The translations under genes and the position numbers were made by a program. From assembly GCA_947174735.1 (NCBI GenBank), contig CAMWKC010000009.1:1-20153 (forward strand): a stretch of 20,153 nt of DNA, in the 5' to 3' direction. Shown in pieces: positions 1,637 to 20,136 of the stretch; within the stretch, counting starts at the first letter, position 1; each line of letters opens with the position of its first letter. This stretch comes from an uncultured Porphyromonadaceae bacterium (GTDB lineage: Bacteria; Bacteroidota; Bacteroidia; Bacteroidales; Muribaculaceae). The notes beneath the pieces were generated by a model. It saw only the letters and a list, made by a program, of their open reading frames with translations, was not told the DNA's origin and did no database searches.

Positions 1637-1984
1637 TTATTTAAGTTTGTCTGAAAGGTCGCTTGCTTTATCGGCGATAAAGTCAAGTCCTTCGGCAGCT
1701 TTTTCTTTTAGCTTATCCAAGAATCCTTCAGCTTTGGGAGCGAGCTGTTCTTTGGCAGCAGCAGCTTTGGCAGCTAACTGGTCTTTAGCGGCAGCAGCTT
1801 TATCAAGCAAATCATCCTTTACCTGAGCAGCTTTACCGGCAGCCTGGGCCGCCATATTCAGAGCCTGTTCTTTCAGATTAGCGGCTTCATCCTGAGCAGC
1901 CTGTTGTGCAGCTTCAGCACTAAGTTGAGCAGCTTCCTGTGAAATTTGTGCGGCCTCCTGGGCCTTCTCTTGTAGATTATCCAT
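1637..1984 (-). CDS. Ala-rich amphipathic repeat protein (7-mer then 11-mer repeats)
   Basis: This 115-residue hypothetical protein has no signal peptide and no membrane segment. Residues 11 to about 56 follow a seven-residue pattern (AAQISQE, AAQLSAE, AAQQAAQ, DEAANLK, EQALNMA). Residues 57-111 are five 11-residue units of the form D/E-x-L/I-x-x-K-A-x4, for example DQLAAKAAAAK (68-78) and DKLKEKAAEGL (90-100), ending DKLK. Such 11-mers are known from LEA group 3 proteins, apolipoproteins and synuclein, where they form long amphipathic helices. No cysteine is present. It is a single-gene unit: terminator hairpins follow, and a 477-bp gap separates it from the divergent ybeY. I do not recognise a named family, and a function in stress protection or membrane-surface binding would be inference only. 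Start ATG at 1984; composition and terminator both support a real gene. Confidence 0.8.
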   Translation of the reverse strand: MDNLQEKAQEAAQISQEAAQLSAEAAQQAAQDEAANLKEQALNMAAQAAGKAAQVKDDLLDKAAAAKDQLAAKAAAAKEQLAPKAEGFLDKLKEKAAEGLDFIADKASDLSDKLK

Positions 1985-2461: not shown

Positions 2462-2881
2462 ATGTTGGATTTTGAAAGCCAGAATGTCGTGCATCCTGAT
2501 TTCGATACTGCGAAGATGTTTCGTTGGATTACTGCTGTAGCCGGTGAGCACAATCGTCGTATCGGGTCGGTCAGTTATCGTTTCTGCAGTGATGACGATA
2601 TACTTGATGCCAACCGTAAATTTCTCGGCCACGACTATTATACAGATATAATCACCTTCGATTATTCGCGTGGTGACAGGATAGGTGGTGATATACTGAT
2701 TTCGCTTGATACCGTTGCGTCGAATGCAGCTGAGTTAGGAGTGTCATACGAAGAAGAACTCCGCCGTGTAATTATACATGGTATACTTCATCTTTGCGGT
2801 ATCGACGACAAAGGACCTGGAGAGCGTGAGATAATGGAAGCCGAGGAGAACAAGGCTCTCGCTATGTGGGACACTATCTGA
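2462..2881 (+). CDS. ybeY: Endoribonuclease YbeY, 16S rRNA maturation and ribosome quality control
   Basis: YbeY is a metal-dependent single-strand endoribonuclease that helps mature the 16S rRNA 3' end and clear defective ribosomes in the cytoplasm. The product has 139 residues, typical for the compact Bacteroidetes form. Family signatures are LGHDYYTDIITFDY (55-68), GGDILISLDTV (75-85) and the metal site HGILHLCGIDDK (106-117). Two zinc-binding histidines are present (H106, H110), but the third, in the HGxLHxxGxDH pattern of E. coli, is replaced by aspartate (D116). As I recall, Bacteroidetes members generally deviate here, so this is probably lineage-specific rather than loss of function. 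The gene has its own promoter and lies 9 bases before mnmG, so the two are surely co-transcribed. Confidence 0.95.
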   Translation: MLDFESQNVVHPDFDTAKMFRWITAVAGEHNRRIGSVSYRFCSDDDILDANRKFLGHDYYTDIITFDYSRGDRIGGDILISLDTVASNAAELGVSYEEELRRVIIHGILHLCGIDDKGPGEREIMEAEENKALAMWDTI

Positions 2882-2890
2882 ACCGACCCG

Positions 2891-4831
2891 ATGCGTTTTG
2901 AATATGATGTCATAGTAGTCGGAGCCGGTCATGCCGGCTGTGAGGCAGCTGTGGCTTCTGCCCGTCTCGGAGCACGTACATTATTGGTGACAGCTGATCT
3001 TGAACGTGTGGCACAGATGTCGTGTAATCCTGCTGTCGGCGGTATTGCAAAAGGGCAGATTGTACGTGAGATTGACGCACTCGGCGGTCAGAGCGGTATT
3101 ATAGCTGACAGGACTGCAATACAGTTCAGAATGCTTAACCGTTCAAAAGGACCGGCCATGTGGTCACCGCGTGTCCAGAGTGACCGTCGCCGCTATTCGG
3201 CTATGTGGCGTGACGTGCTTGAGCATACAGACAATCTTGAATTGTTTCAGGATATGGTTACTCGTTTGGACTTAGAGGAGACTGACGACGGGCAACCGAG
3301 AGTAACCGGTATTCATACCGCTCTCGGCTTTCGTTTCAAGGCTCAGTGTGTAATACTGACTAACGGTACTTTTCTGAATGGTCTGATGCACTTCGGCAGT
3401 ACTATGATTGAAGGCGGCCGTATCGCTGAAAGCGCCTCGCACGGACTTACCGAACAGTTAGTGTCACTTGGTTTCGTAGCCGGACGTATGAAGACCGGTA
3501 CACCGGCACGTGTATCGGCACGCAGTATCGACTTCTCTATGTCCGAGCCTCAGGCCGGTGACGATAGGGTAATAGAGAATGCCAATAGTGAGATAACGGA
3601 AGTTATACGTGACTTCCACAAATTCTCTTTCCTGCCTGAAGTCCGTCGTGAACTGATGCCGCGTCTGTGCCACATAGTACATACCAATCCGGAAAGCCAT
3701 CGTATATTGCATGATAATCTTGCCGACTCTCCTCTTTATAACGGACAGATACAAAGTGTGGGTCCGCGCTATTGTCCGAGTATAGAAACAAAGATTGTAA
3801 CCTTTGCCGATAAGGAAAGTCACCAGTTGTTTCTTGAACCGGAAGGCGAGACTACTGATGAGTATTATATCAACGGCTTTTCAAGTTCTCTGCCATGGGC
3901 TGTTCAGCTTGAGGCCTTACAGAAAATACCTGCCTTACGCGATGTGCATTTCTACCGTCCCGGCTATGCTATAGAATATGATTATTTCGATCCTACTCAG
4001 CTAATGCATACGCTGGAGACAAAACAGATAAGAGGATTATATTTTGCCGGACAGATAAACGGTACGACAGGTTACGAGGAAGCGGCTTCCCAGGGTCTTA
4101 TGGCCGGTATCAATGCAGCTCGTGCTACACAGAATAAAACAGGCATTGTACTCGGACGTGACCGTGCATATATAGGAGTGCTTATTGATGACCTTGTCAC
4201 GAAAGGTGTAGACGAACCTTACCGTATGTTTACCTCACGTGCCGAATATCGTATATTGCTTCGTCAAGATGATGCCGACATGCGTCTCACATCGCTCGGT
4301 TACGAAATAGGTCTCGCCGATGAACATCGTTATCATCTTATGGAGACCAAACGCAGAGAGCGCGACAGTCTGATGGAGTGGTGCGCTAATTATACCGTAC
4401 GTTCTTCTGATGAATTAAATCGGCAGTTAACAGATTTAGGTACGACACCTCTGACGGGCGGCGTCCGTCTTACAGAGTTGCTCAAACGTCCGCAACTGGA
4501 CTTCCGAAAGCTCGCTGTATTATTGCCGAAGCTTTCCCGACGACTCAAAGATATAGAACCGTTACGTTGTGCGGAAATTATAGAAGCAGCAGAAATTCTG
4601 ATTAAGTATAGCGGTTATATTGACCGGGAAAGAGACCTCGCTGAGAAGGCTGCCCGTCTTGAAGGAGTGCGCTTATCGGATACGCTTGATTATATGTCTC
4701 TGCTTAGTCTATCGACTGAGGCTCGACAGAAGCTGACCCGTATTCGTCCGTCTACACTTGGACAAGCTTCACGTATACCCGGAGTGTCACCTGCTGATGT
4801 CAATATCCTCATGATGCTGGTGAGAAAATAA
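2891..4831 (+). CDS. mnmG: tRNA uridine-5-carboxymethylaminomethyl modification enzyme MnmG (GidA)
   Basis: MnmG works with MnmE in the cytoplasm to place the cmnm5 group on wobble uridine 34 of certain tRNAs, using FAD, NADH and methylenetetrahydrofolate. The 646-residue product starts with the FAD-binding Rossmann segment VVGAGHAGCEAA (9-20). The two family cysteines are present: C45 in SCNPAVGGIAKG and C295 in GPRYCPSIETK. The FAD-binding segment GLYFAGQINGTTGYEEAASQG and the C-terminal helical domain follow, so the protein is full length. The start 9 bases after ybeY suits the family start MxFxYDVIVVGAG. A parS site begins five bases after the stop codon. In many bacteria mnmG (gidA) lies beside the origin and the partition genes, which agrees with the parS cluster downstream. 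Confidence 0.98.
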   Translation: MRFEYDVIVVGAGHAGCEAAVASARLGARTLLVTADLERVAQMSCNPAVGGIAKGQIVREIDALGGQSGIIADRTAIQFRMLNRSKGPAMWSPRVQSDRRRYSAMWRDVLEHTDNLELFQDMVTRLDLEETDDGQPRVTGIHTALGFRFKAQCVILTNGTFLNGLMHFGSTMIEGGRIAESASHGLTEQLVSLGFVAGRMKTGTPARVSARSIDFSMSEPQAGDDRVIENANSEITEVIRDFHKFSFLPEVRRELMPRLCHIVHTNPESHRILHDNLADSPLYNGQIQSVGPRYCPSIETKIVTFADKESHQLFLEPEGETTDEYYINGFSSSLPWAVQLEALQKIPALRDVHFYRPGYAIEYDYFDPTQLMHTLETKQIRGLYFAGQINGTTGYEEAASQGLMAGINAARATQNKTGIVLGRDRAYIGVLIDDLVTKGVDEPYRMFTSRAEYRILLRQDDADMRLTSLGYEIGLADEHRYHLMETKRRERDSLMEWCANYTVRSSDELNRQLTDLGTTPLTGGVRLTELLKRPQLDFRKLAVLLPKLSRRLKDIEPLRCAEIIEAAEILIKYSGYIDRERDLAEKAARLEGVRLSDTLDYMSLLSLSTEARQKLTRIRPSTLGQASRIPGVSPADVNILMMLVRK

Positions 4832-4836
4832 TCTGG

Positions 4837-4852
4837 TGTTTCACGTGAAACA
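4837..4852. promoter_or_regulatory. parS: parS site 1 (ParB-binding centromere)
   Basis: TGTTTCACGTGAAACA is a perfect 16-bp palindrome identical to the canonical chromosomal parS bound by ParB/Spo0J. It begins five bases after the mnmG stop codon. Confidence 0.93.
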
Positions 4853-4867
4853 TTTAAATTGTGCGGG

Positions 4868-4883
4868 CGTTTCACGTGAAACG
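4868..4883. promoter_or_regulatory. parS: parS site 2
   Basis: CGTTTCACGTGAAACG is a perfect palindrome with the 14-bp parS core and a C/G outer pair in place of T/A. Its centre lies 31 bp from that of site 1, about three helical turns. Confidence 0.9.
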
Positions 4884-4989
4884 TTCGGAGTTTATTATAG
4901 GAAACAGGATTTGTAAGATAATTTATCATTGTTTTTGGATTGTGCTCTTCTTGGCTATTTTTAAAACGACATGATAAAATAGTAATGGG

Positions 4990-5005
4990 TGTTTCACGTG
5001 AAACG
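4990..5005. promoter_or_regulatory. parS: parS site 3
   Basis: TGTTTCACGTGAAACG has the full 14-bp parS core and differs from the canonical site only in the last base. It is centred 122 bp after site 2. Confidence 0.9.
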
Positions 5006-5060
5006 TCGAAGATGTGAAAGTGGGGTAGAGGTGATGTTTGAAAGAATATCATGAAAGATG

Positions 5061-5076
5061 TGTTTCACGTGAAACA
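5061..5076. promoter_or_regulatory. parS: parS site 4
   Basis: TGTTTCACGTGAAACA is a second perfect copy of the canonical site. The flanks AAAGATG (5054-5060) and CATCTTT (5075-5081) are also complementary, extending the dyad apart from a two-base TG insertion in the left arm. Confidence 0.93.
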
Positions 5077-5126
5077 TCTTTGATAAGAATTATAATCTGC
5101 ATAAATGAAAAATGTCTACCGAATAT

Positions 5127-5143
5127 TTTGTGTGAAATATTGG
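5127..5143 (+). repeat. 17-bp shared upstream element, copy A (before apt)
   Basis: TTTGTGTGAAATATTGG is identical to bases 5937-5953 upstream of uvrC. This copy ends 106 bases before the apt ATG and the other 105 bases before the uvrC ATG. The following bases here are AACAATC, running into parS site 5. The equal distance suggests a common promoter or regulator element. Confidence 0.6.
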
Positions 5144-5154
5144 AACAATCTATT

Positions 5155-5170
5155 CGTTCCACGTGGAACA
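5155..5170. promoter_or_regulatory. parS: parS site 5, GGAAC-type variant
   Basis: CGTTCCACGTGGAACA has the palindromic core GTTCCACGTGGAAC, the parS version known from Pseudomonas, with the same CACGTG centre as the other four. It starts 12 bases after the 17-bp element shared with uvrC and lies 78 bases before the apt start, so bound ParB could influence apt transcription. Confidence 0.85.
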
Positions 5171-5248
5171 TTAAAAATATTTTAGCGTTTATTCGGTGCT
5201 CTTTTTTTTGAAATAGAAAATCATCAACTGACTAAAATAAATAATACA

Positions 5249-5773
5249 ATGGAATTGGAATCATTAAAGAAACTGATACGTGATGTGCCTGATTTCCCCA
5301 GCAAGGGCATCATGTTTCGTGATTTGACAACTCTGATTAAAGACGGTCATGCCTTGCAGGTAATGAGCCGTGAGTTAGCTGACCTCTATCGTGACAAAGG
5401 TGTGACAAAGGTTGTGGGTATTGAGTCGCGTGGATTTATCGGAGGGTCTATTCTGGCTTATGAGTTGGGATGTGGATTTGTACCGGCTCGTAAACCTGGC
5501 AAGCTGCCTTCCGTGACAGTGAAAAAATCATACGCTAAGGAGTATGGTGTAGATACTATCGAAATCCATAATGATGCCATAGATGAGAACGACGTGGTTG
5601 TACTTCATGATGACCTGTTAGCTACAGGTGGAACTATGGAAGCCTGCTATGAATTGGTGAAAAGTATGAACCCAAAGAAAATTTATATCAACTTCATTGT
5701 AGAACTGACTGCTCTGCATGGCCGTGAGAACCTGCCTCAGGATTGTGAAGTGACAGCTCTTCTGAAGTATTGA
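5249..5773 (+). CDS. apt: Adenine phosphoribosyltransferase
   Basis: Apt salvages adenine by joining it to PRPP to give AMP and pyrophosphate in the cytoplasm. The 174-residue product has the usual length. Visible signatures are IRDVPDFPSKGIMFRDLT (10-27), ESRGFIGG (59-66), RKPGKLP (81-87), the flexible-loop segment KSYAKEYG (93-100) and the PRPP-binding motif VVVLHDDLLATGGT (116-129). Start ATG is the only one that gives the full N-terminal segment. The gene stands alone between the parS cluster and a 284-bp gap, although it may also be read from mnmG. A TTTGAAATAGAAAA tract 29 bases upstream resembles the ybeY leader. Confidence 0.97.
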   Translation: MELESLKKLIRDVPDFPSKGIMFRDLTTLIKDGHALQVMSRELADLYRDKGVTKVVGIESRGFIGGSILAYELGCGFVPARKPGKLPSVTVKKSYAKEYGVDTIEIHNDAIDENDVVVLHDDLLATGGTMEACYELVKSMNPKKIYINFIVELTALHGRENLPQDCEVTALLKY

Positions 5774-6057: not shown

Positions 6058-8070
6058 ATGAATATGTCAGATAATCTCGAATCCATACAGGCCGCCTTCG
6101 GAGCTGCCAATCAAAAGAACGATACAGACAGTGTAGGCAACATAGCCGATACCCGTCCTGTGGCCGATATTTTGTCGGACTTCGGCCGTAGTATTGATGA
6201 AACAGGTGGCTTTCCGCTGGAGATAAAACCTGATCGTACTACCGAAGATATTCACCATAACCGGCCGGGTGCACAGTTACGTGCCAAGATACTTGGTTTG
6301 CCTGAGTCTCCGGGGGTATATATGTATATCGACCGTCACGGGCGGGTCATATATGTCGGAAAAGCCAAAAGACTCAAACGTCGTGTAAGCTCATACTTCA
6401 ACCGTATCCATGATTCAGTGCGTACAAATCTCATGGTGCGCAACATTGTCGATATGCGTTTCATTGTGGTGCATACCGAAGAGGACGCTCTGCATCTTGA
6501 GAATGCCATGATAAAGGAATATCAGCCGAGATATAATGTATTACTCAAAGATGATAAGTCTTATCCGTGGATAGTCGTAACTAAAGAACCTTATCCGCGT
6601 GTATTCATGACACGCGAAAGGGGATTGGATGCGAAATATTACGGTCCGTACAGTAATACTGCCTCGGCACGGGTGGTGCTGGAACTGATACGTGAGATAT
6701 ATCCGCTTCGCAGTTGTCGTCATGCTCTTGACCAAAAGAGCATAGCCCGTGGAAAGTATCGTCTTTGTCTCGATTATCATCTCGGTAAATGCGGAGGGCC
6801 CTGTCGTGGCCTTATACACATCGACGATTATAATGAAGCTGTAAGCCGGGTCCGTCAGATACTCAACGGAGACACGGTTGAACTTGAACAGCACCTGCGT
6901 GACGAAATGAACCGGCTGGCCGGAGAGTGGAAATTCGAGCAGGCAAATCAGGTCAAGGAAAAATACCTTGCCGTACAGCGTTACAATACCAAGGCTATAA
7001 TCTCCGCAGCCGATAAACCTGATACCGATATGTTCGCCTACGTCGAGGAGGGTGATACGGCATACGTTAACTTTATGCATCTTCACCGAGGTGCCGTGAT
7101 ACAGAGTCTCAATATGGAGTTCCGCAGGCGTCTCGCCGAATCGAAAGAGTCAATACTGTCGTATGCCATAAGTGAGATAGCACGGCGTTTTGACCGTAAG
7201 TTCAGAGAAGTGATAGTACCTTTTGAACCGGATGTCGAATTTGAGGGAGTTCGTTTTACGGTGCCTCGACGTGGTGAAATGCGCAAGCTTCTTGAAGTGG
7301 GAGAGAAGAACGCCCGGCAATATATGGCCGACAAACAGAAGCAGGCCGAGGTTCTCGATCCGGAACATGGGGTGAACCGGCTAATGGAGCAAATGAAAAC
7401 AGACTTTCGCCTCAGCGTTGAACCGCGCCATATAGAATGTTTCGATAACTCCAACATTCAAGGTACGAATCCCGTGGCAAGTTGTGTGGTGTTCCGTAAC
7501 GGCAAGCCCAGTAAACGTGATTACCGTCACTTTATAATAAAGACTGTCGAAGGACCCGATGATTTTGCTTCGATGAAGGAAGTCCTGCATCGACGTTATA
7601 CACGCATGATGGCCGAAGGACAGCCGTTGCCGCAGCTTGTGGTAGTTGACGGTGGCAAGGGACAACTCAGTGCTGCCGTTGAGGCTTTCGACGAGATGGG
7701 TATACGTGGAGAGGTGGCTTTGGTAGGTATTGCCAAGCGTCTTGAAGAGATTTATTTTCCCGGAGATACGCTACCGCTCTATATTGATAAAAAGAGTCCG
7801 AGTCTGCGGGTCATACAGGCTTTGCGTGACGAAGCGCACCGGTTTGGTATCACACATCACCGTCTGCGCCGTTCCAAAGGACAGATAAGTAGTCAGCTTG
7901 ACGATATCAAAGGAATAGGACCGGCCACAGCACAGACGCTCATGAAACACTTCAGAAGCGTAAAGCGTATGAAAGAGGCTTCACTTGATGAACTTTCCGC
8001 TGTAGTCGGAAAAGCTAAAGGAAGTATAATCTACACTCATTTTCACAGTCCGGAAGATGAGCTACAATAA
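6058..8070 (+). CDS. uvrC: Excinuclease ABC subunit UvrC with N-terminal extension
   Basis: UvrC makes both incisions around a DNA lesion after UvrA2B loading in nucleotide excision repair. In order the 670-residue product shows a GIY-YIG nuclease domain for the 3' cut (GVY 86-88, YVG 99-101, about 78-165), four cysteines spaced like the known UvrC Fe-S ligands (C220, C237, C245, C249), a UVR motif that contacts UvrB (about 275-312), an RNase H-like domain for the 5' cut (catalytic D463, D531 and H594) and tandem helix-hairpin-helix motifs (about 611-655). Relatives usually begin close to the GIY-YIG domain, whereas this frame has about 72 extra acidic, probably disordered residues. The only in-frame Met codons before the domain are M1 and M3, so the extension appears real. 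rnr follows after 65 bases, probably in one transcript. Confidence 0.97.
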   Translation: MNMSDNLESIQAAFGAANQKNDTDSVGNIADTRPVADILSDFGRSIDETGGFPLEIKPDRTTEDIHHNRPGAQLRAKILGLPESPGVYMYIDRHGRVIYVGKAKRLKRRVSSYFNRIHDSVRTNLMVRNIVDMRFIVVHTEEDALHLENAMIKEYQPRYNVLLKDDKSYPWIVVTKEPYPRVFMTRERGLDAKYYGPYSNTASARVVLELIREIYPLRSCRHALDQKSIARGKYRLCLDYHLGKCGGPCRGLIHIDDYNEAVSRVRQILNGDTVELEQHLRDEMNRLAGEWKFEQANQVKEKYLAVQRYNTKAIISAADKPDTDMFAYVEEGDTAYVNFMHLHRGAVIQSLNMEFRRRLAESKESILSYAISEIARRFDRKFREVIVPFEPDVEFEGVRFTVPRRGEMRKLLEVGEKNARQYMADKQKQAEVLDPEHGVNRLMEQMKTDFRLSVEPRHIECFDNSNIQGTNPVASCVVFRNGKPSKRDYRHFIIKTVEGPDDFASMKEVLHRRYTRMMAEGQPLPQLVVVDGGKGQLSAAVEAFDEMGIRGEVALVGIAKRLEEIYFPGDTLPLYIDKKSPSLRVIQALRDEAHRFGITHHRLRRSKGQISSQLDDIKGIGPATAQTLMKHFRSVKRMKEASLDELSAVVGKAKGSIIYTHFHSPEDELQ

Positions 8071-10479: not shown

Positions 10480-12780
10480 ATGAACAAGAAATTCCTCCTG
10501 TCCGCTGCCGTAGCCGGTGTCATGCTTCCCGCTGTGGCTTCTGCCGACAATGTGATTGTAGCTACCGACGCTTATCGATGGGTAGGCGATTCGATAGTAC
10601 AGGGTGAGTATAAAGCATGGGCCGAGAGTCCTGTCGAAATACGGTCAACCTATCATGCTCGTCCACATTATTTCATGCCTGTGGAGCAATCATGGCGTCT
10701 GAAAAATGACATCAGTGCTTATCCACGTCTGCACAGCACCAACCGTCTGCACGAGGCTATTTACAACATGGGCCTTGACGAAATGATCAATGCTGTCGAG
10801 CCCGATACGACGTTGCGTACCGGTAAGGAATGGGCAGGTGTCTGGACCCGCGACGTGAGCTATTCTATTATTCTCTCTATGGCCGCTCTGCAGCCGGAGG
10901 CTTCGATGATTTCGCTCATGAAGAAAGTCAATGCCGAGGGTCAGATTATTCAGGATACCGGTTCGGGCGGTGCATGGCCTATAAGTACCGACCGTATGAT
11001 ATGGGTTGTGGCTGCCTGGGAAGTGTACAAAGTGACTGGTGATATGGACTGGCTACGTAAGGTCTATCCCATAGCAGTGCGGAGCCTTGCCAAAGATGCC
11101 GCCACAGTGATGAGTGCCGACGGTCTGGTAAAGGGTGAGACATCATTCATCGACTGGCGTGAACAGAGTTATCCGCGCTGGATGCAGACTGCCGATATAG
11201 CACAGAGCGAAGCTATGGGCACCAATGTCCTTTATGCCGCCGCTCTGCAGGCAACTTCTGATATGGCGTCTATTCTTGGTCATAAGAAGGAAGCTGCGCA
11301 ATATGCAGCCGAGGCAAAGCGGTTAGGTGAAGCTATTGATCATGCGTTCCGTATGGACGATAAAGGTTACTGGGGTATGTACCGTTACGGTCGAGACTCG
11401 ATGTTGCTTAATCCGCGTGCCGAGAGCCTTGGACTTGCATTGGCAGTACTCTATGATGTGGCTTCGCCCGAACTTCAGCGTTCCATATCGGAAAATGCTC
11501 CGGTGACGCCTTACGGACCTCCGGTATTCTGGCCGCAGATTTCCGATATGCCAAACTATCATAATAATGCTCTTTGGCCGTTTGTGGCTTCCTATTGGAC
11601 TCTTGCGCAGGCTAAGGCCGGTAACGAGCAAGGTGTTCTCGAGGGTATAGGTTCTGTTTACCGTCCTGCCGCGCTCTTCGCTACCAACAAAGAAAATCTC
11701 AATCTTGACAACGGCGATATATTCACTGAGCTGAATTCATCGAATATGCTGTGGTCTCTGTCGGGCAATCTTGCCTTGACGCAGCAGATTCTTTTCGGTA
11801 TACATTTCGAGCCGAACGGACTTCGTATCGCACCTTTTGTACCTAAGGCACTGGCTGGCGACCGGACCCTTGAGAATTTCCCGTATCGTGGAGCGAGTCT
11901 TGATATAACGGTAAGCGGCTATGGTGACAATGTAGCTTCGCTTACACTCAATGGTAAGAAGCTAAAGCCCGGTGAAGTTATACCGGCTTCGCAACTGAAA
12001 GGACATTGCAATATCAAGGTAGTTATGGATAACGAACCTATCCGTCCTATGTCGCTGTCACGTACTCCCAACGTTAAAGCTCCGCTTACACCGATAACAT
12101 GGCTGTCTCACGATCCGGAACTCTCCGGTGCCGATGTACCTGTCGAGAATCGTCTGCAGTGGAATCCTATAGAGTATATAGCCGGTTATATCGTCCTGCG
12201 TGACGGTGAAGAAGTAGGGCGCACACGTCAGACAACTTGGGCCGCTGTTGAGCCGGGAGAGTGGCAGGTAATCGGTATAGATGGTAACGGCGTGCAGTCG
12301 TTTGCTTCCGAACCGCGTAGCAATCGTCCGCATTTGGTAGCCGAAATGCCTGGAGAGAGTACAGCTTTGCGTTCATCTGAAATCAGCTATCGGCCAGAAA
12401 CTCCTGTTGACGGTTTCAGCGGTGCGGGCTTCGTTGAGGTTGACCATGCTTCCGCACCTGTAAATATTGCGGTCGATATTCCGGCGGACGGTATATATAC
12501 TTTCGCTCTGCGTTATGCCAATGGCAATGGTCCGGTCAATACCGAAAACAAAGCAGCTATACGTACTCTCGCTGTTGACGGTACCAATGCCGGTACTGTC
12601 GTGATGCCGACACGCGGTGTAGCCAACTGGAATGACTGGGGGCTTAGCAACACAGTACGTGTGCCGCTGAAAGCCGGACGCCATACCGTCACCGTCGAAT
12701 ACCTCCCCGAAGACGAGAACATGAACCTCTCTACCAACCACGCTCTCCTTGACCGTCTCGTCATCGAGCGTGCCCGATAA
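10480..12780 (+). CDS. Secreted (alpha/alpha)6-barrel glycoside hydrolase with C-terminal beta domains
   Basis: The 766-residue product starts with a clear Sec signal peptide (KKFLLSAAVAGVMLPAVASA, cleavage near residue 22). Residues about 75-440 look like a six-hairpin (alpha/alpha)6 glycosidase of the clan that includes GH63, GH78 and bacterial glycogen-debranching-like proteins. Marks are GVWTRDVSYSI (120-130), GSGGAWP (161-167), a DWRE segment (225-228) and NNALWPF (362-368). In related barrels an acidic residue in a DWxE-type segment is the general acid, so E228 or D225 is a candidate. A small beta domain follows (about 445-520), then a fibronectin-III-like segment (about 535-615) and a carbohydrate-binding-module-like beta sandwich (about 640-766). 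The CAZy family and substrate cannot be assigned by eye. It converges with the SusC/D operon, so it may act on the same or a related glycan. Confidence 0.75.
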   Translation: MNKKFLLSAAVAGVMLPAVASADNVIVATDAYRWVGDSIVQGEYKAWAESPVEIRSTYHARPHYFMPVEQSWRLKNDISAYPRLHSTNRLHEAIYNMGLDEMINAVEPDTTLRTGKEWAGVWTRDVSYSIILSMAALQPEASMISLMKKVNAEGQIIQDTGSGGAWPISTDRMIWVVAAWEVYKVTGDMDWLRKVYPIAVRSLAKDAATVMSADGLVKGETSFIDWREQSYPRWMQTADIAQSEAMGTNVLYAAALQATSDMASILGHKKEAAQYAAEAKRLGEAIDHAFRMDDKGYWGMYRYGRDSMLLNPRAESLGLALAVLYDVASPELQRSISENAPVTPYGPPVFWPQISDMPNYHNNALWPFVASYWTLAQAKAGNEQGVLEGIGSVYRPAALFATNKENLNLDNGDIFTELNSSNMLWSLSGNLALTQQILFGIHFEPNGLRIAPFVPKALAGDRTLENFPYRGASLDITVSGYGDNVASLTLNGKKLKPGEVIPASQLKGHCNIKVVMDNEPIRPMSLSRTPNVKAPLTPITWLSHDPELSGADVPVENRLQWNPIEYIAGYIVLRDGEEVGRTRQTTWAAVEPGEWQVIGIDGNGVQSFASEPRSNRPHLVAEMPGESTALRSSEISYRPETPVDGFSGAGFVEVDHASAPVNIAVDIPADGIYTFALRYANGNGPVNTENKAAIRTLAVDGTNAGTVVMPTRGVANWNDWGLSNTVRVPLKAGRHTVTVEYLPEDENMNLSTNHALLDRLVIERAR

Positions 12781-12816
12781 GAAAGTTTCTGCTATTGGCG
12801 TATGAACAATAAAGAA

Positions 12817-12857
12817 AGAAGGAGACAGGCACACGGAAGCAGTGTCTGTCTCCTTTT
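12817..12857. terminator. Bidirectional terminator between convergent glycosidase and GH97 genes
   Basis: AAGGAGACAG (12819-12828) pairs with CTGTCTCCTT (12846-12855), and four more inner pairs including one G-T follow. On the plus strand the stem runs into TTTTGGATTT; on the minus strand it runs into TTCTTTCTTTATTG. It lies between the stop codons of two converging genes (12780 and 12943), the usual place for a shared terminator. Nothing else was found in this 162-base gap. Confidence 0.75.
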
Positions 12858-12942
12858 GGATTTGCAGTTATACCGGATTGCTATTGATAACTGCACATCA
12901 TTTCACCTTTTCGTTACTTATCTTTACTAATTCTCACCTTCT

Positions 12943-14949
12943 TCATTTCGCAGCGAGTTTTGTGAGCTTGATAGCGCAACCGCCGCTACGGCCCTGTGGA
13001 ATGGTAAGAGACATATCGGACGTTACATCTTTCTGCTCTATTATCACAGGATAAGGGTCGGTATCATAATTAGCGTTTTCACCGTCACGGTAGATAGTGG
13101 CGCGATAAGTACACTCGGGGTCGAGGAAAGAAAGATTGATATTGGCTGTACGAGCTTCGTCACCTGTGGCACTGCCAACAAACCAGCTGTCTCCGCCTTT
13201 CTCTTTACGGGCGGTGGTAATATATTTTCCTATCTCAGCTTCAGGAAATACTGTTTTATCCCAGTCGGTCGGACAATCGCAGACAAACTGAAAAGGACCG
13301 GGATTTGACTCATAGTTTTCTATTTCATCTGATGCCATCTGCAAAGGCGAGTAAAGAATTACGAACAGAGCAAGCTGTTTGGCAAGTGTGGTGTTGACAT
13401 GGGTTTGAGGCATAACGGGATTCTCAAACCTGAAAGTAACGGGTGTAAAGTCCATCGGGCCGGCCAGACCACGTGTGAAGGGAAGAGTTACAGTATGCGA
13501 CGGAGGATTACCACCTTCTGGACACCATGCATCCCATTCCTGACCACGTACACCTTCCTGAGTCATAAGATTAGGATAGGTACGCTGCAGACCTGTGGGC
13601 ATTACCGGCTCGTGATTATCTATTGCGAGACGGTGACGTGCCGCAGTCTCTATGACTTTACGGTAATGGCGTACACCGAACTGACTGCTGTGCAGCTCTT
13701 TATTATCAAGCATATCACCTACATAACCGGTTTTTACATAGTGCATACCGTTATCTGCATAGAGTTTCATGCCATCCTCCATCTGACGCTCATAATTGGC
13801 TATTTTGCCGCCTGTCTCATGATGACCTATGAGTGCCACACCCTTCTCACGTCCGTAGCGGTTTAGTTCGGCGATATCAAAATCCTCGTATGGACGTGTG
13901 AAAGAAAAGTCCCATGTAACCCAGTCATGGTTCCAGCCTTCTACAAGTACACCGCCGAAATTATGGCGGGCTGCAAAGTCCATATAGCGTTTTACGTTTT
14001 CGGTTGTTGCTCCATGTTTTTCGCCGGCTTCCCATGTGGCGGTTTTCATGTGATAGCACCACCATACTCCGAGGTAACGTTGCGGCACACAGAATTCTTC
14101 AGCATTCTCAATAGCACATGGTTCATTGAGGTTTAACATTATACGGCTAAGAGCCATATCGCCGGCGTTATCAGCTATTATAAGTGTACGCCAGGGAGAT
14201 ACACGTACATCGGTTACAAATACCTTTTCACCTGATTGCCACGGAGTGAGTTCGGCCTTCAATACAGTTGAGCCGGGAGTTGACTGAAGATTCATAGCGG
14301 CATAATCGGTAAGATTAGCTTCGTGCAGGGCTAAATGTGTACCGTCAGCACAACGCATAGTGACAGGTGTGGATACTTTACCCATACGGTCAAGAGGCAG
14401 TTCACGGAACAGTGCTTCATAGAAACGGTAGCCTTCAGCCGGAATACTCCAGGTGTCAGGACATTCGTCAAAGGCGAACTCAGTAAGTTCATCCATTATG
14501 ACAAAGTCCTGAAGCGACTGCTGACGAGGAAACTCGTACCGGAAACCTATACCGTCGTTAAAGACACGGAATACGATAGCTATGTTACGTCCGGGAGCGA
14601 TCTTCTTTTGCTGGAGATTGACACGTAGCTCGTTGTAATTGTTATCTATTAACGACTCTTCGCCCCATACAGGTTGCCATGTTTCTGAATGGGAATCCCT
14701 GTCGGCTGATTTAACCGAAATGCCCTCAGCAAAATCGGGCTGTTCCTTCAGTTTCAATCCCAGACGTGACTCATTGAGTAGCGGATGCCCCTTGTGTGTG
14801 ACGGAATAATACGGTACTCCTTTCTTTGTATCGAACTCAAGATTAATTGAGCCGTCGGGGGATGTCACCGCCAGCGGCTTGGCAGTACCACATAGTGTAC
14901 TGCAAGCCATAACGGTAATGGATATAATGTATTTTTTAAGGCTTATCAT
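12943..14949 (-). CDS. susB: GH97 alpha-glucosidase, inverting SusB-type
   Basis: GH97 enzymes hydrolyse alpha-linked glucosides or galactosides with calcium. The 668-residue product has an N-terminal beta-sandwich (about 25-285), a catalytic TIM barrel (about 290-565) and a C-terminal beta domain. Acidic residues line up with SusB of Bacteroides thetaiotaomicron: E210 (LALHEAN), E337 (VEGWN), E378 (HHETGG), E447 (DNHEP) and E471 (GQEWD), with spacings of 69 and 24 between the last three as in SusB E439, E508 and E532. The YVKTGYVG segment (404-411) has Gly where retaining members carry the nucleophilic Asp. This predicts an inverting alpha-glucosidase. The N-terminus is a secretion signal; a VMAC (13-16) lipobox is possible, so a lipoprotein is not excluded. 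Only one base separates it from the upstream lipoprotein gene, so it ends the operon. The symbol is by analogy. Confidence 0.92.
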   Translation of the reverse strand: MISLKKYIISITVMACSTLCGTAKPLAVTSPDGSINLEFDTKKGVPYYSVTHKGHPLLNESRLGLKLKEQPDFAEGISVKSADRDSHSETWQPVWGEESLIDNNYNELRVNLQQKKIAPGRNIAIVFRVFNDGIGFRYEFPRQQSLQDFVIMDELTEFAFDECPDTWSIPAEGYRFYEALFRELPLDRMGKVSTPVTMRCADGTHLALHEANLTDYAAMNLQSTPGSTVLKAELTPWQSGEKVFVTDVRVSPWRTLIIADNAGDMALSRIMLNLNEPCAIENAEEFCVPQRYLGVWWCYHMKTATWEAGEKHGATTENVKRYMDFAARHNFGGVLVEGWNHDWVTWDFSFTRPYEDFDIAELNRYGREKGVALIGHHETGGKIANYERQMEDGMKLYADNGMHYVKTGYVGDMLDNKELHSSQFGVRHYRKVIETAARHRLAIDNHEPVMPTGLQRTYPNLMTQEGVRGQEWDAWCPEGGNPPSHTVTLPFTRGLAGPMDFTPVTFRFENPVMPQTHVNTTLAKQLALFVILYSPLQMASDEIENYESNPGPFQFVCDCPTDWDKTVFPEAEIGKYITTARKEKGGDSWFVGSATGDEARTANINLSFLDPECTYRATIYRDGENANYDTDPYPVIIEQKDVTSDMSLTIPQGRSGGCAIKLTKLAAK

Positions 14950-14950
14950 A

Positions 14951-15400
14951 TCAGTTGAGATAAGTTACATGAATTTTATGCTTATTGCCGTCTATGATCA
15001 CCTGATAGGTACCGCTTTCTGTTACTACCCATTTATTATCCGGGTTACCGTCCGGCATAAGCGATATTTCTTCCGATACCACGCCTGTATGACTTATAGT
15101 AACTCCGTTGACAGCAGGCATTATGAACGGGCCGCCCCAGTTGCCCGGTTCCATCGGACATTTGAATTCCCCTTCATTCAGTGTGCCTTCATAACGGAAT
15201 ATGTTGGCATCGGTTTTCTCCATTTGTACAGGATTATCTATATTCCAGTCGGCAGGTGTGGCATTACCAACCATCCAGAGATTCTCTATTTCGTAAGGTG
15301 TGACAGGTATTTCCACAACGTTGAGGTCTTTATCTGAGTCGCAACCTGTCAGAGGGAAAAGCGACAGGAGTATAATGGGAGCTATAAAGTATAGTTTCAT
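14951..15400 (-). CDS. Short SusE/SusF-like surface lipoprotein, single glycan-binding module
   Basis: This 149-residue product begins with a lipoprotein signal ending in LTGC (lipidated C20). The next residues, DSDKD, are acidic, as in Bacteroidetes export signals for surface lipoproteins. Residues about 38-147 match one module of the SusE/SusF outer-membrane starch-binding proteins: NLWMVGNATPADWNID (40-55), GEFKCPMEPGNWGGPFI (77-93) and a C-terminal strand GTYQVIIDGNKHKIHV. Candidate sugar-stacking aromatics are W52, W88 and W124. SusE and SusF themselves are about 390-490 residues with several modules, so this is a minimal version. It lies between susD (13-base gap) and GH97 (1-base gap), the position of susE/susF in starch loci, so its task is presumably to bind alpha-glucan at the cell surface. 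Confidence 0.8.
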   Translation of the reverse strand: MKLYFIAPIILLSLFPLTGCDSDKDLNVVEIPVTPYEIENLWMVGNATPADWNIDNPVQMEKTDANIFRYEGTLNEGEFKCPMEPGNWGGPFIMPAVNGVTISHTGVVSEEISLMPDGNPDNKWVVTESGTYQVIIDGNKHKIHVTYLN

Positions 15401-15413
15401 GAGTACTGATATA

Positions 15414-17132
15414 TTAATAACCGGGATTCTGAATCAGATTGTGGTTTGTGTCGATAGCCTTTCTCGGCACAGGGAAAATAGTGGTATGTGCATCGGTATC
15501 GGCCTGTTTATCCCACCATATACCTGAGTTGAACATACGGAAACGTATGAGATCTGTGCGACGGCGACTCTCTGCAAAGAATTCGCGTCCCCATTCATCG
15601 AGTAGTTCCTGTTCGCTAAGGTCTACATTGCCTTCAGGTGCGTAGAGATTGGATTGCCATGACTCCGTTGGGTAATTACGTTTACGTACACTGTTGAGTA
15701 ACTTTGCCGCCTCATCGGTACGACCGCTGCGGAATTTGCATTCAGCCAGAGAATATATCACTTCGGCGAGACGTATTTCTACAAAATCGGATTCTATCTG
15801 ACCGGCATCTTCGTCGCTATAGAAAGGATATTTGGCAAAGTGATAACCTGAGTTGTGATCTCCGCTTTGGAGATTACTGGTCTTATCCTGCGGCCACTCA
15901 TCTTCGGCAAGGCCGCTGAAATGTCCGACTGCATCGCGTATATTTAACTCATAATTGCCGTATGGATCGGTGATATATTCTTCGCCTTCCTTGATTGAAG
16001 GAAGTTTACCGAATATAAACAGTCCTTCACGAGTACTGTTGCCAAGATTACGGTACAGTTTCAGACGTACATCTTCCGGATAGTTACGGAATTTCTGTAC
16101 CGTGTTACCTAATGTATAGGAATACAGATTACCGCTAAGGTCATAACTCGGTGTGCAGGCATATTTGCAGTTATGGTCGCCTGCCTCGGCTTTGGTATCA
16201 CCGACGTAGTAGCGGAACTGAGACGGGGTGCTCCACCAGTATGTATCGCCTTGATAATGCCAGAATGTATAACCTTGCGAAGCGGGAAAGGCAAATATAA
16301 CCTCAGGACAGTTTTCATTGTTCCAGTCGAACGGAGCATCCCAGCGGTCAGCTAAGGAATATGAGCCGAATTCACCGTCGAGTATCCGTTGGGCCCATTC
16401 CGTACACTTATCGAAGCGGGCGGTTCCGGTCCATATTTCTGAGTTGAGGTAGATACGTACAAGGAGAGCTGCGGCTCCGGCTTTGTTCCATTGTGCCTGA
16501 TATATTTCGTTACCGCCGTTACCTGTTTTGACTGACAGGAGATCGACACACTCGATCAGTTCAGCTTCTATGAAGTCAAAGAGTTCCTGCGGCGACACCT
16601 GACCTTTGGAGTTAAGGCTGACGTCTTTGCTTATGGCAAGCGGTACATTACGGAAACTGTCGAGAAGACGGATATAAAACCATGCGCGAAGTACGCGGCT
16701 CTGGGCCTTAAGATTGTTGAATTCCTCTTCAGTAAATCCGAATCTGTCAGCCGAAAGCGTCTGGAGGTCATCGAGGACATAGTTAGCCTGCATGATACCC
16801 TGAAAACAACCGTTCCATTCTGTTTCGATTGTGCCTTCTTCAACGGTCCATGTGTGATAGTGATAACGGCGCCATAAGCCTCCGTCATCCCACCAGCCGT
16901 CACGCGACGGGGTTATAAGCTGGTCAGCGCTGAGTTCATTGAGCACGTGGCGACTCTGAATACTCCAAAATCCGTGCTCGAACGGACGAAATACCGCACG
17001 TATTACGTCGTTGCGTGTGTTATAGTAGTTACCGGAAGAAACCTGGTCGTATACGGTTTCATCAAGATCTGTGCAGCTTGTCAGCGAGAGAGCACCTAAA
17101 GCCAGAGCTGCTATATATGAACGTAGTTTCAT
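15414..17132 (-). CDS. susD: SusD/RagB-family outer membrane glycan-binding lipoprotein
   Basis: SusD-like lipoproteins sit on the cell surface as a lid over the SusC transporter and capture oligosaccharides. The 572-residue product has a lipobox LTSC (lipidated C20) followed by TDLDE, the start typical of the family. Helical TPR-like segments carry ANYVLDDL and LNSVRKRNYP, and the family hallmark EWGREFFAESRRRTDLIR lies at 513-530. The protein ends NPGY, as SusD members commonly do. Length is normal and no break is seen. It is rich in surface-type aromatic stretches (for example WWDDGGLWRRYHYHTW near 80-95) that may contact sugar. It follows susC after 22 bases. The true ligand is unknown; the GH97 neighbour points to alpha-glucan. 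The symbol names the family. Confidence 0.96.
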   Translation of the reverse strand: MKLRSYIAALALGALSLTSCTDLDETVYDQVSSGNYYNTRNDVIRAVFRPFEHGFWSIQSRHVLNELSADQLITPSRDGWWDDGGLWRRYHYHTWTVEEGTIETEWNGCFQGIMQANYVLDDLQTLSADRFGFTEEEFNNLKAQSRVLRAWFYIRLLDSFRNVPLAISKDVSLNSKGQVSPQELFDFIEAELIECVDLLSVKTGNGGNEIYQAQWNKAGAAALLVRIYLNSEIWTGTARFDKCTEWAQRILDGEFGSYSLADRWDAPFDWNNENCPEVIFAFPASQGYTFWHYQGDTYWWSTPSQFRYYVGDTKAEAGDHNCKYACTPSYDLSGNLYSYTLGNTVQKFRNYPEDVRLKLYRNLGNSTREGLFIFGKLPSIKEGEEYITDPYGNYELNIRDAVGHFSGLAEDEWPQDKTSNLQSGDHNSGYHFAKYPFYSDEDAGQIESDFVEIRLAEVIYSLAECKFRSGRTDEAAKLLNSVRKRNYPTESWQSNLYAPEGNVDLSEQELLDEWGREFFAESRRRTDLIRFRMFNSGIWWDKQADTDAHTTIFPVPRKAIDTNHNLIQNPGY

Positions 17133-17154
17133 TGTGGTCGTTATTGGTCAGGTA

Positions 17155-20136
17155 TCAGAAATCAAGTTGTACGCCGAAAATGAACTGACGGCATGAGGGA
17201 TAATATGTACGTGAGCCTGTGGCACCGGGAGTAAGACCGTTGGTCTGGAATGATGACGGGTCCACACCGCTGTATGAAGTGATTGTAAACAGATTTTTAG
17301 CTGTGAATGTCAAACGCAGACTGTCAAGGAAACGTTTGTTTATGTTGAAAGTGTATCCGAGAGTAAGAGCATCAAGTTTCACATAGTCGCCTTTTTCCAG
17401 ATAATAATCGGTGACTTCCTGGCTTCCTTTCAAGACATCATACTTGGTGTAAGCTTTCTCCATAACGTTGCCCATAAACGACTGATGACCATAGTAGAAA
17501 TCATGAATATTGAAGATATCGTAACCGAAAGCTCCGCGGAAAAACAGTGAGAGGTCAAAATTCCTGTAACGGAATGTGTGAGTCATAGAAGCTGTGAACT
17601 TAGGAAGACCGTTACCTACAATTGTTCTATCCTCTTCTGTACCTTCTGAAGCAAGCTTGATATTGCCGTCTTTATCATAGATTGCCCAGTTGCCGTTCTC
17701 ATCAATACCGGCGTAGCGGTACATGTAGAAGTTACCGAGGCGTTTGCCCTGTTCAATGCGCTGAAGGTTATGGAAGGGGTATGGATCTTCGGTACCTACC
17801 ATATCATAATAGTCCTGACCTACATACTCGGAATTGCTGAAATTGACAAACTTATTGTCCATCGTAGCACCAACGAAGTCGATGGTGTAGTTGAAATCGT
17901 GCGTGGTTACTGCATTCCAACGTATGTCGAATTCAAAACCGGAGTTGCGCATTGTGCCTACATTCACAAAAGTTGAGCTGAACAGATAGGGTGGTACCGA
18001 TACATCATAGTCACCGAGCAGGTCCTGCTGATTACGTGTATAATAGTTGAGAGACCCGTAAACCTTATTTCCAAATAGACCGAAATCAATACCTATGTTC
18101 CAGTTCTTGGCCTTCTCCCAGCGCAGATCGGGGTTGACGTTCTTACCGGGACCCCATACCTGATAATACTTACCTTGATAATAGTAATATCCGAAACCGC
18201 TCATTGTATTCAGAGACATATAGCTGCTGAAGTCCTGATTACCTGTCTCGCCATAGTCACCGCGTACTTTCAGTTCGTTCAGCCATTCAAAGTCGCGCAT
18301 GAACGGTTCTTCTGATAATCTCCAGCCTAAAGAGAAAGCTGGGAAATTACCCCATTTATGGTTGGCACCGAATTTTGACGAGCCTTCGTGTCTTAGTGAG
18401 GCGGTGGCAATATAACGTCCCTGCCAGTCATAGCTTACACGGCCGAAGAAGGCTATGAGCTTGCAGTCGTTCTTATAAGACCCTATACCTACATGGCCTT
18501 CTTCAACGGCCCACTGTCCGGAACCGAGATTGTTGGCACCCAGACCGTCGTTAGGAAAGTCCTTGTTGTCTGCATTCACACCTGAATACTGGCTGTATTG
18601 GTATGAATAACCTACCATAGCCTTTATATTGTGATTATTGAATGAACCGGTATAGTTTCCTAACCATTCCAGACTGCGCTGGAATCCTTTTGAGTAACTA
18701 CGTGAGCCTTCTCCGTCGTAGCCGTTGTTCTGTGAAAGAGTGGAAGTCGAAGGACGAAACCAGTAGTTGAAATTGGAGTCCTCATGATCAGCTACAGTCA
18801 CCTGCGTATTAAGTGTCTGTGAAGGCCAGCTTTCTTTGGCGAACAGTGGTAATAGATTTAATTTGACGGTTGCATCGGTTTCAAGAAGCTTTGTAGTAGC
18901 CGAGTTGTCTTCGAGAGCCATCATTTCGACAGGATTATAACCTGCTGTCTGACCTGTAAAGTTGGTATACTGAGCTGTTTCTGTGTCCCATATAGGAGTA
19001 GTGGGATTTGCTTCCAGTGCGTTGCGGAACACATCCCATGAAGCTATTTTACGTTCTATAATGCGGGGAGCGACATTGAGGTTGAAGGTAAGCAGACCGC
19101 CCTTTGTAGTATGATTGACTGAAGCACGGCCGCCGAATTCCTCACGGTTTGAGTAGCGATCCACACCGTTCTGATTACGGTAATCGACTGTGGCGCGGTA
19201 ATTGGTCTTTTCGTTACCACCGCTGATACTTACGGTATGTGATGTTCCCCAGCCTGTACGTGTGACAGCGTCAATCCAGTCGTCATTACCGCCGAGGTCC
19301 ACACCGTTTACCGCATCAGCCCTGAGGGTACGGTAAGATTCGGCATCGAGCATTTTCAGTTCATGGTTGGCTACATTGGCGGTAACAGAACCTATATAGG
19401 AAGTATGCACAGCGCCGTCACGCGAACCTTTTTTAGTAGTGACTACTATCACACCGTTTGAACCTCTGGTGCCGTATATAGCTGCCGCCGCACCGTCTTT
19501 AAGAATATCGAAACTGGCAATGTCATTAGGATTGAGGTTTGTGAGGTTGCCGCCGGGCACTCCGTCTATTACAATCAACGGACCAAGACCTGCCGAACGC
19601 GATGAAACGCCGCGTATCTGAATCGAAGCCTGATTATTCGGGTCGCCTACACCTGTATTGGTAATTGAGACACCGGGAACTTTACCCTGAATCATCATGG
19701 TAGGGTCAAGTGAACTTGACGCAAGAAAATCTTCTGAGCCTATGTGTGCTACTGTTGAAGTAACCTCTTTTTTATCCATTGTGCCGTAGCCTACCACAAC
19801 GACTTCGTCAAGAAGGCTGGCATCTTCAGTCATACGTATCTCTATTACACTACGGCCTCCGAGTTTTACCTCCTGTGTCTTGTATCCGACATAACTGGCG
19901 ATAAGAGTAGCCTTCTCACTGACTCCTTTCAGAGTAAATTCACCATCAATATTGGTGGCATCTGCGATAGTGGAGTCTTTTACTCTCACCGTGGCCCCGA
20001 TCAGCGGTTCCTCAGTCGAGGCGTCTATTACCACGCCTTTGACTTCTATGTTCTGTGCTATAGCCGGGATATTGTGGCCGGCGATAGTAAGCAGAAGAAG
20101 CATGAAAAATAACTTAATGTGCATTACGGTTTTCAT
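17155..20136 (-). CDS. susC: SusC/RagA-family TonB-dependent outer membrane transporter
   Basis: SusC-like proteins import glycan fragments through the outer membrane using TonB energy, paired with SusD. The 993-residue product has a signal peptide (cleavage after AIA, about residue 27), a carboxypeptidase-regulatory-like domain (about 30-105, GVVIDASTEEPLIGATVRV), the SusC hallmark and TonB-box region LDEVVVVGYG (109-118), a plug domain (about 120-235 with IQIRG and PLIVIDGVPGG) and a 22-strand-type barrel ending in Phe (FGVQLDF), the usual outer-membrane assembly signal. There is no N-terminal STN domain, so anti-sigma signalling by this protein is not expected. ATG at 20136 was chosen because it gives a full signal peptide; Met5 is an alternative. 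It is first in the operon with susD, the SusE/F-like gene and GH97. Its promoter lies outside the window (only 17 bases remain). Confidence 0.97.
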   Translation of the reverse strand: MKTVMHIKLFFMLLLLTIAGHNIPAIAQNIEVKGVVIDASTEEPLIGATVRVKDSTIADATNIDGEFTLKGVSEKATLIASYVGYKTQEVKLGGRSVIEIRMTEDASLLDEVVVVGYGTMDKKEVTSTVAHIGSEDFLASSSLDPTMMIQGKVPGVSITNTGVGDPNNQASIQIRGVSSRSAGLGPLIVIDGVPGGNLTNLNPNDIASFDILKDGAAAAIYGTRGSNGVIVVTTKKGSRDGAVHTSYIGSVTANVANHELKMLDAESYRTLRADAVNGVDLGGNDDWIDAVTRTGWGTSHTVSISGGNEKTNYRATVDYRNQNGVDRYSNREEFGGRASVNHTTKGGLLTFNLNVAPRIIERKIASWDVFRNALEANPTTPIWDTETAQYTNFTGQTAGYNPVEMMALEDNSATTKLLETDATVKLNLLPLFAKESWPSQTLNTQVTVADHEDSNFNYWFRPSTSTLSQNNGYDGEGSRSYSKGFQRSLEWLGNYTGSFNNHNIKAMVGYSYQYSQYSGVNADNKDFPNDGLGANNLGSGQWAVEEGHVGIGSYKNDCKLIAFFGRVSYDWQGRYIATASLRHEGSSKFGANHKWGNFPAFSLGWRLSEEPFMRDFEWLNELKVRGDYGETGNQDFSSYMSLNTMSGFGYYYYQGKYYQVWGPGKNVNPDLRWEKAKNWNIGIDFGLFGNKVYGSLNYYTRNQQDLLGDYDVSVPPYLFSSTFVNVGTMRNSGFEFDIRWNAVTTHDFNYTIDFVGATMDNKFVNFSNSEYVGQDYYDMVGTEDPYPFHNLQRIEQGKRLGNFYMYRYAGIDENGNWAIYDKDGNIKLASEGTEEDRTIVGNGLPKFTASMTHTFRYRNFDLSLFFRGAFGYDIFNIHDFYYGHQSFMGNVMEKAYTKYDVLKGSQEVTDYYLEKGDYVKLDALTLGYTFNINKRFLDSLRLTFTAKNLFTITSYSGVDPSSFQTNGLTPGATGSRTYYPSCRQFIFGVQLDF

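What the first reader, a model, noticed from the sequence alone, without database searches (positions are those of the whole stretch)
4837..5170. Cluster of five parS centromere sites between mnmG and apt
Five 16-bp palindromes centred on CACGTG occur in 334 bases: four with core GTTTCACGTGAAAC (two of them the full canonical site) and one with core GTTCCACGTGGAAC. I found no further copy elsewhere in the window. All lie in non-coding DNA. Known: this is the ParB/Spo0J-binding sequence across many phyla, and mnmG/gidA often lies near the origin. Inferred: this gap is the chromosomal centromere of the organism and the replication origin is probably within tens of kilobases, although parA, parB and dnaA are not in view.
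Basis: partly seen in the sequence, partly recalled or inferred. Interest (0 to 1): 0.72.

Follow-up and report, generated by a model that had tools for sequence, protein, structure and literature searches.

The report
Five-site chromosomal centromere beside mnmG
This is very probably the DNA landing pad for the ParB chromosome-segregation protein in a gut Bacteroidales bacterium; it is an ordinary kind of centromere, unusual only in having five copies of the site where most of its close relatives have one.

Summary
Five exact GTTNCACGTGNAAC sites lie in the 417-bp mnmG-apt gap; they are the only exact sites in the 2.49 Mb, 72% complete draft. The draft encodes adjacent ParA and ParB; ParB has the Arg and Gly that mark parS rather than Noc-site reading. 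The place is conserved: of 52 genus genomes examined, all chosen for having an exact site, 51 have one 10-157 bp after the aligned end of mnmG. Copy number is the peculiarity: 80 of 111 genus genomes have one exact site, three have five or six, and those three are one clade. Between the two closest, site bases are 68/70 identical against 237/390 outside. In three complete chromosomes of the order, the best-fitting origin-type GC-skew switch lies 61-140 kb from parS at 165-265 kb sampling; dnaA is 0.7-2.3 Mb from it. ParABS is known, phylum members carry up to ten exact sites, and origins unlinked to dnaA are published (PMC10197239, passages). Ordinary, with a modest clade-specific twist.

The parts
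4837..4852 (.). parS site 1, TGTTTCACGTGAAACA, full canonical, 16-bp palindrome
   Evidence: a site at the same aligned place in G121 and G061
4868..4883 (.). parS site 2, CGTTTCACGTGAAACG, 16-bp palindrome; 31 bp after site 1, the same spacing in all three multi-site species
4990..5005 (.). parS site 3, TGTTTCACGTGAAACG, 14-bp palindrome plus unpaired outer bases
5061..5076 (.). parS site 4, TGTTTCACGTGAAACA, full canonical
5155..5170 (.). parS site 5, CGTTCCACGTGGAACA, with the GTTCCACGTGGAAC core that prevails among the listed single-site relatives
4832..5248 (.). AT-rich gap (32% GC against 46% for the window) that holds the cluster
2891..4831 (+). mnmG (gidA), the constant neighbour of the sites
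   Evidence: NCBIfam TIGR00136, 787.9 bits against cut-off 524.85
5249..5773 (+). apt, adenine phosphoribosyltransferase, downstream neighbour in most examined genus genomes
   Evidence: NCBIfam TIGR01090, 197 bits against 185.85
2462..2881 (+). ybeY, upstream of mnmG
   Evidence: NCBIfam TIGR00043, 97.8 bits against 45
6058..8070 (+). uvrC, downstream of apt
   Evidence: NCBIfam TIGR00194, 523 bits against 285.45

Best explanation
The gap is the chromosomal centromere (parS cluster) of a ParABS system. The genome's own ParB dimers load at each palindrome, close as CTP-bound clamps and spread over the neighbouring DNA, and ParA moves the resulting complex to segregate newly copied origins. Five sites close together act as several loading points for one ParB domain. 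Shown here: the sites, their exclusivity in the draft, the ParA-ParB pair, the recognition residues, conservation of place and of sites, and nearness to the skew switch in three relatives. Inferred from the known family: binding, clamp formation, spreading and segregation.
For: Exact sites only here in the draft. ParA-like ATPase (L046 11347-12117; Pfam AAA_31 240.4 bits, best PDB matches ParA and Soj proteins) next to ParB (L046 12181-13074). ParB has all three Pfam ParB domains, passes TIGR00180 (186.7 bits against 58.45) and misses the Noc cut-off (239.4 against 315). Residues equivalent to Caulobacter R173 and G201 present. Site 10-157 bp past the aligned end of mnmG in 51 of 52 genus genomes examined, all chosen for having an exact site, and 3' of mnmG in 22 of 23 named Bacteroidota-type loci, several of which are the same contigs as genus genomes. 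Sites kept while the rest of the gap diverges: 68/70 against 237/390, Fisher p 3e-11. Skew switch near parS in 3 complete chromosomes. Published: parS detected in all 12 mouse-consortium genomes, which include Muribaculum intestinale and Bacteroides caecimuris, with origins placed by parS and skew and supported by coverage (PMC10197239, passages).
Against: No binding data. The draft is 72% complete and its best ParA matches in NCBIfam are under their cut-offs (117.1 bits against 180). dnaA was not found in it. G011 shows no clear skew switch, and G036 has further sign changes at 440 and 940 kb. In G276 a two-arc skew pattern is only weakly supported (permutation p 0.07), and next-best splits put the switch up to 541 kb (G228) or 227 kb (G276) from parS. 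Two of the 14 complete genomes and 7 of 111 genus genomes have no exact site. G121 and G061 were found by a search for paired sites, so their keeping of sites is partly by choice.
Confidence: 0.95

Rival explanations
1. The palindromes act in RNA, as hairpins that end mnmG transcription or control apt, and the match to parS is incidental.
For: The gap folds better than shuffles as RNA (z -4.57), and one terminator-like hairpin overlaps site 2 (1 found, 0.4 expected). The sites follow mnmG closely.
Against: Repeated copies of one palindrome pair with each other and give strong folds by themselves. Only 1 of 5 sites has a T-run of the kind scanned for. No Rfam match in the window. parS-type sites also lie on the 5' side of mnmG in loci L072 and L073. 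The genome carries a ParB with parS-reading residues.
Confidence: 0.03
2. The cluster is a repeat from a mobile element or plasmid that happened to land here.
For: Copies lie close together and the four GTTTCACGTGAAAC cores are identical.
Against: No exact copy elsewhere in the draft, no match of the gap in 72,556 plasmid records, and the place is shared by three species and, as a single site, by most genus genomes examined. The likeness of the five copies fades outside the palindrome (69-83% over 29 bases).
Confidence: 0.01
3. The sites are parS, but the replication origin lies elsewhere, so this is a centromere displaced from the origin.
For: The origin was not located in this organism; G011 shows no clear switch; dnaA is far from parS in the order.
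Against: The best skew switch lies 61-140 kb from parS in the 3 sampled complete chromosomes and about 40-95 kb from it on G036:C3; origins do not always go with dnaA in gut bacteria (PMC10197239, passages).
Confidence: 0.1

Closest known systems
Chromosomal ParABS with parS sites (Bacillus subtilis Spo0J, Caulobacter ParB)
   Same: Same 16-bp site family, adjacent ParA and ParB genes, parS-type ParB residues.
   Different: The parB gene is not beside parS: in 15 of the 16 genomes where both were located they are on different contigs, and in G082 on one contig 88 kb apart. dnaA is far away in the order. No protein over the NCBIfam SMC cut-off in the 16 genomes scanned.
parS of the two Bacteroidetes in the mouse OMM12 consortium (Muribaculum intestinale, Bacteroides caecimuris; PMC10197239, passages)
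   Same: Same consensus; origins placed with parS and skew; origin not always with dnaA; no known condensin found in these two.
   Different: The text does not contain 'mnmG' or 'gidA'; I saw no description of this clade or of a five-site array beside mnmG.
parS-rich genomes elsewhere in Bacteroidota (for example unnamed G568, G584)
   Same: Many exact sites, in G568 eight within 440 bases.
   Different: Outside this order, where high counts recur in several genera (g149, g189, g242); in the 32 order genomes outside the genus that I counted, none has more than three.
Noc-NBS nucleoid occlusion
   Same: Related protein family and palindromic sites.
   Different: Residues are parS-type and the protein is under the Noc cut-off.

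Membership tests
Chromosomal parS / ParABS | Palindrome matching TGTTNCACGTGNAACA | tested here: met
   2 of 5 match all 16 bases, 5 of 5 the inner 14
Chromosomal parS / ParABS | ParA and ParB genes in the same genome | tested here: met
   Adjacent on contig C22; the ParA matches in NCBIfam are below their cut-offs
Chromosomal parS / ParABS | ParB residues that read parS (R173, G201 in Caulobacter numbering) | tested here: met
   R and G in G000 and in all 16 chromosomal-type ParBs aligned (rule from PMC7383237 passages)
Chromosomal parS / ParABS | Sites concentrated near the replication origin | tested here: inconclusive
   Concentrated in one gap; origin not locatable in the draft; best skew switch 61-140 kb away in 3 complete relatives at 165-265 kb sampling; not clear in G011
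Chromosomal parS / ParABS | ParB binds the sites in vivo and spreads | not testable with these tools
   Needs ChIP-seq or a gel shift
SMC loading at parS | Canonical SMC-ScpAB present | tested here: not met
   0 of 16 genomes with a TIGR02168 match over cut-off (all have weaker ones, best 43.3 bits against 567.35); 13 of the 16 are at least 90% complete, G000 is not; at most 23 candidates a genome were scored. ScpAB was not searched.
Noc binding site (NBS) | Noc-type residues (Q173, R201) and Noc family score | tested here: not met
   R and G instead; 239.4 bits against cut-off 315

The most novel reading that the evidence does not exclude
In one small clade the ancestral single parS next to mnmG was amplified to five or six sites together with a change in the ParB recognition helix (Thr at the base-contacting position 172 and Val at 174, where 10 of 13 other ParBs aligned have Lys at 172). 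The array would then compensate for weaker single-site loading on a chromosome that lacks a canonical SMC.
Probability: 0.12. Interest if true: 0.5.

Novelty: new member of a known kind. Interest (0 to 1): 0.27.

Why it matters
It suggests a simple landmark: in Bacteroidales the parS next to mnmG, not dnaA, may mark the origin region, which would help to orient draft genomes and growth-rate estimates. The rise from one to five or six sites in one clade is a natural test of why bacteria keep different numbers of parS sites.

Tried and rejected
The window's own skew profile is too short to place an origin. G011:C11 was tiled over the contig (36 stretches) and gave no clear switch. A search for the DnaA-box-like TTATNCACA (motif recalled) found one match in the window, at 6812, as expected by chance (0.74). 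Rfam gave nothing. The plasmid search gave nothing.

Literature: searches with terms for parS in Bacteroidetes, Bacteroides, Bacteroidota or Flavobacterium, parS with mnmG, the number of parS sites, and origin with gidA in Bacteroides listed no paper whose title or abstract start speaks of the mnmG-parS link. Passages were seen of PMC10197239, PMC8653839 (no mention of mnmG or gidA) and PMC7383237; the rest only as listings. The 2007 survey by Livny et al., cited in PMC10197239, is not held, so it may already list such sites.

Extra exact sites away from mnmG in relatives: in the 52 genomes there are 11 in 10 genomes, besides the one site of G013 that was not tied to mnmG. Five (G044, G058, G066, G067, G076) lie within about 2.5 kb of the mnmG site and may be real. 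Six lie on other contigs, near the control rate (10 of 111 genomes have one reversed-pattern match). None was followed.

Full report
What is there. The gap between mnmG (2891-4831) and apt (5249-5773) holds five sites with the inner 14 bases GTTNCACGTGNAAC, at 4837, 4868, 4990, 5061 and 5155. Two are the full canonical TGTTTCACGTGAAACA. Three are perfect 16-bp palindromes; the sites at 4990 and 5155 are palindromic over 14 bases. None of 100 shuffles of the window gave an exact match. In the whole draft (G000, 2,491,881 bases, 388 contigs, 72% complete) these five are the only exact sites; the control, the pattern read backwards, has none. With two mismatches allowed the draft is not enriched (61 against 75). 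Base composition alone predicts about 0.14 exact sites in a genome of this size.

The partner proteins. Contig C22 of the same draft carries a ParA-like ATPase (L046 11347-12117) directly followed by ParB (L046 12181-13074). The ATPase matches Pfam AAA_31 and CbiA, and its best solved relatives are ParA and Soj proteins; its NCBIfam matches shown are under their cut-offs. ParB has the N-terminal, HTH and dimerisation domains of Pfam, passes the TIGR00180 cut-off and misses the Noc cut-off; its closest solved relatives by sequence are ParB, Noc and Spo0J structures. Jalal et al. (PMC7383237, passages) report R173 and G201 as conserved in ParB orthologues and Q173 and R201 as the Noc state. The draft's ParB has R and G at these places, and so do all 16 chromosomal-type ParBs that I aligned; three further ParB-like proteins were not extracted and are not counted.

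Conservation of place. Of 111 genus genomes, 7 have no exact site, 80 have one, 20 have two, one has three, two have five and one has six (counted from the table). I examined the surroundings in 52 of the 104 that have an exact site: in 51 a site lies 10 to 157 bp after the last aligned mnmG codon (median 47). The exception, G013, has its only site on a fetched stretch without mnmG. The exception, L089, has TGTTCCACGTGGAAAC, one extra base in the right arm. apt follows in the genus loci but no apt match was seen in the Alistipes-type, Tidjanibacter-type and Flavobacteriales-type loci, so mnmG is the constant neighbour. In five complete genomes of the order for which mnmG was in the capped list (G192, G228, G247, G276, G327), a site again directly follows mnmG. 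The pattern search fixes twelve bases, so it cannot itself show how strictly they are kept; that rests on the comparison below.

The expansion. G000, G121 and G061 have five, five and six sites, all in the mnmG-apt gap; one of the six in G061 contains an undetermined base. They form one fully supported clade in a tree of MnmG plus Apt from 51 genomes (100/100); the other 60 genus genomes were not placed, so a member of the clade without the array is not excluded. The first two sites are 31 bp apart in all three. Between G000 and G121, 68 of 70 site bases are identical against 237 of 390 others in the aligned stretch, which includes about 40 coding bases at its ends; with G061 it is 64 of 70 against 150 of 390. 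G121 and G061 were first noticed by a search for paired sites, which favours keeping of sites to some degree. With that limit, the sites are kept while the DNA between them drifts.

The origin. In three complete chromosomes of the order (of 14 listed) I took 20 tiles of 20 kb each. The best-fitting negative-to-positive skew switch falls about 61, 140 and 62 kb from parS (G228, G327, G276), within the tile spacing of 240, 265 and 165 kb. Among the five best splits the distance ranges over 61-541, 125-140 and 62-227 kb. dnaA is about 2.28, 1.92 and 0.72 Mb from the best switch. Permutation of the tiles gives p 0.001, 0.0055 and 0.07 for a two-arc pattern at all. On long contigs, G036 turns from mostly negative to mostly positive around 330-380 kb with parS at 423 kb, with further sign changes at 440 and 940 kb; G011 shows nothing clear. 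In the 12 complete genomes with an exact site, dnaA and parS are at least about 0.55 Mb apart (genome lengths partly rounded). This agrees with PMC10197239 (passages), which used parS to choose the origin-type skew switch, found coverage support, and warned that dnaA does not always mark it. For the window's organism the distance to the origin is inferred, not measured.

How it most likely works. ParB loads at each palindrome, closes as a CTP-dependent clamp and spreads; ParA then moves the complex. These steps are taken from the known family. What the complex hands over to is open: no match over the SMC cut-off was found in the 16 genomes scanned, in line with the report that two Bacteroidetes of a mouse consortium lack known condensins (PMC10197239, passages). 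MukBEF, MksBEF and ScpAB were not searched.

Comparison. This is a member of a well-known kind. In 296 phylum genomes, 22 including G000 have five or more exact sites, up to ten (counted), so five sites are not new in the phylum. In the 32 genomes of the order outside the genus that I counted, none has more than three (16, 14, 2). What is particular is that the array is found in one clade inside a genus where one site is the rule. The ParB of this clade carries Thr at position 172, which contacts parS in Caulobacter; of the 13 other ParBs aligned, 10 have Lys, two Asn and one Ser. A link between that change and the array is a guess: it is one event in one clade.

Noticed in passing
complete genomes G192, G228, G247, G262, G271, G276, G281, G312, G325, G327, G335, G336: dnaA lies at least about 0.55 Mb from parS in these 12, and in three sampled chromosomes it is 0.7-2.3 Mb from the best skew switch; dnaA looks like a poor origin marker in this order.
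   Followed up: partly
16 genomes: No match over the NCBIfam SMC cut-off in any; which complex, if any, ParB loads in Bacteroidales is open.
   Followed up: partly
L072 9980 and 11900, L073 9961 and 11867; genomes G465, G469, G480, G652: Pairs of parS-type sites about 1.9 kb apart; in L072 and L073 they flank mnmG on both sides. L072 has a third at 11492, inside mnmG.
   Followed up: no
L089, gap after 11950: Relative whose only parS-like site in the gap has one extra base in the right arm (GTTCCACGTGGAAAC).
   Followed up: no
L016, L192, L193: ParB recognition-helix residues (Thr172, Val174) shared by the three multi-site species.
   Followed up: partly
G012:C10:61523-62002, G012:C72:2730-3203, G042:C55:25166-25660: Extra ParB-like genes (open frames of 658, 654 and 305 aa), perhaps of mobile elements.
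   Followed up: no
window 10480-20136: The rest of the window looks like a polysaccharide-use locus (SusC/SusD-like pair and glycoside hydrolase-like genes; names recalled from the translations, not searched).
   Followed up: no
window 1637-1984, - strand: Open frame for a small Ala/Glu/Lys-rich protein of repeated segments, function not examined.
   Followed up: no
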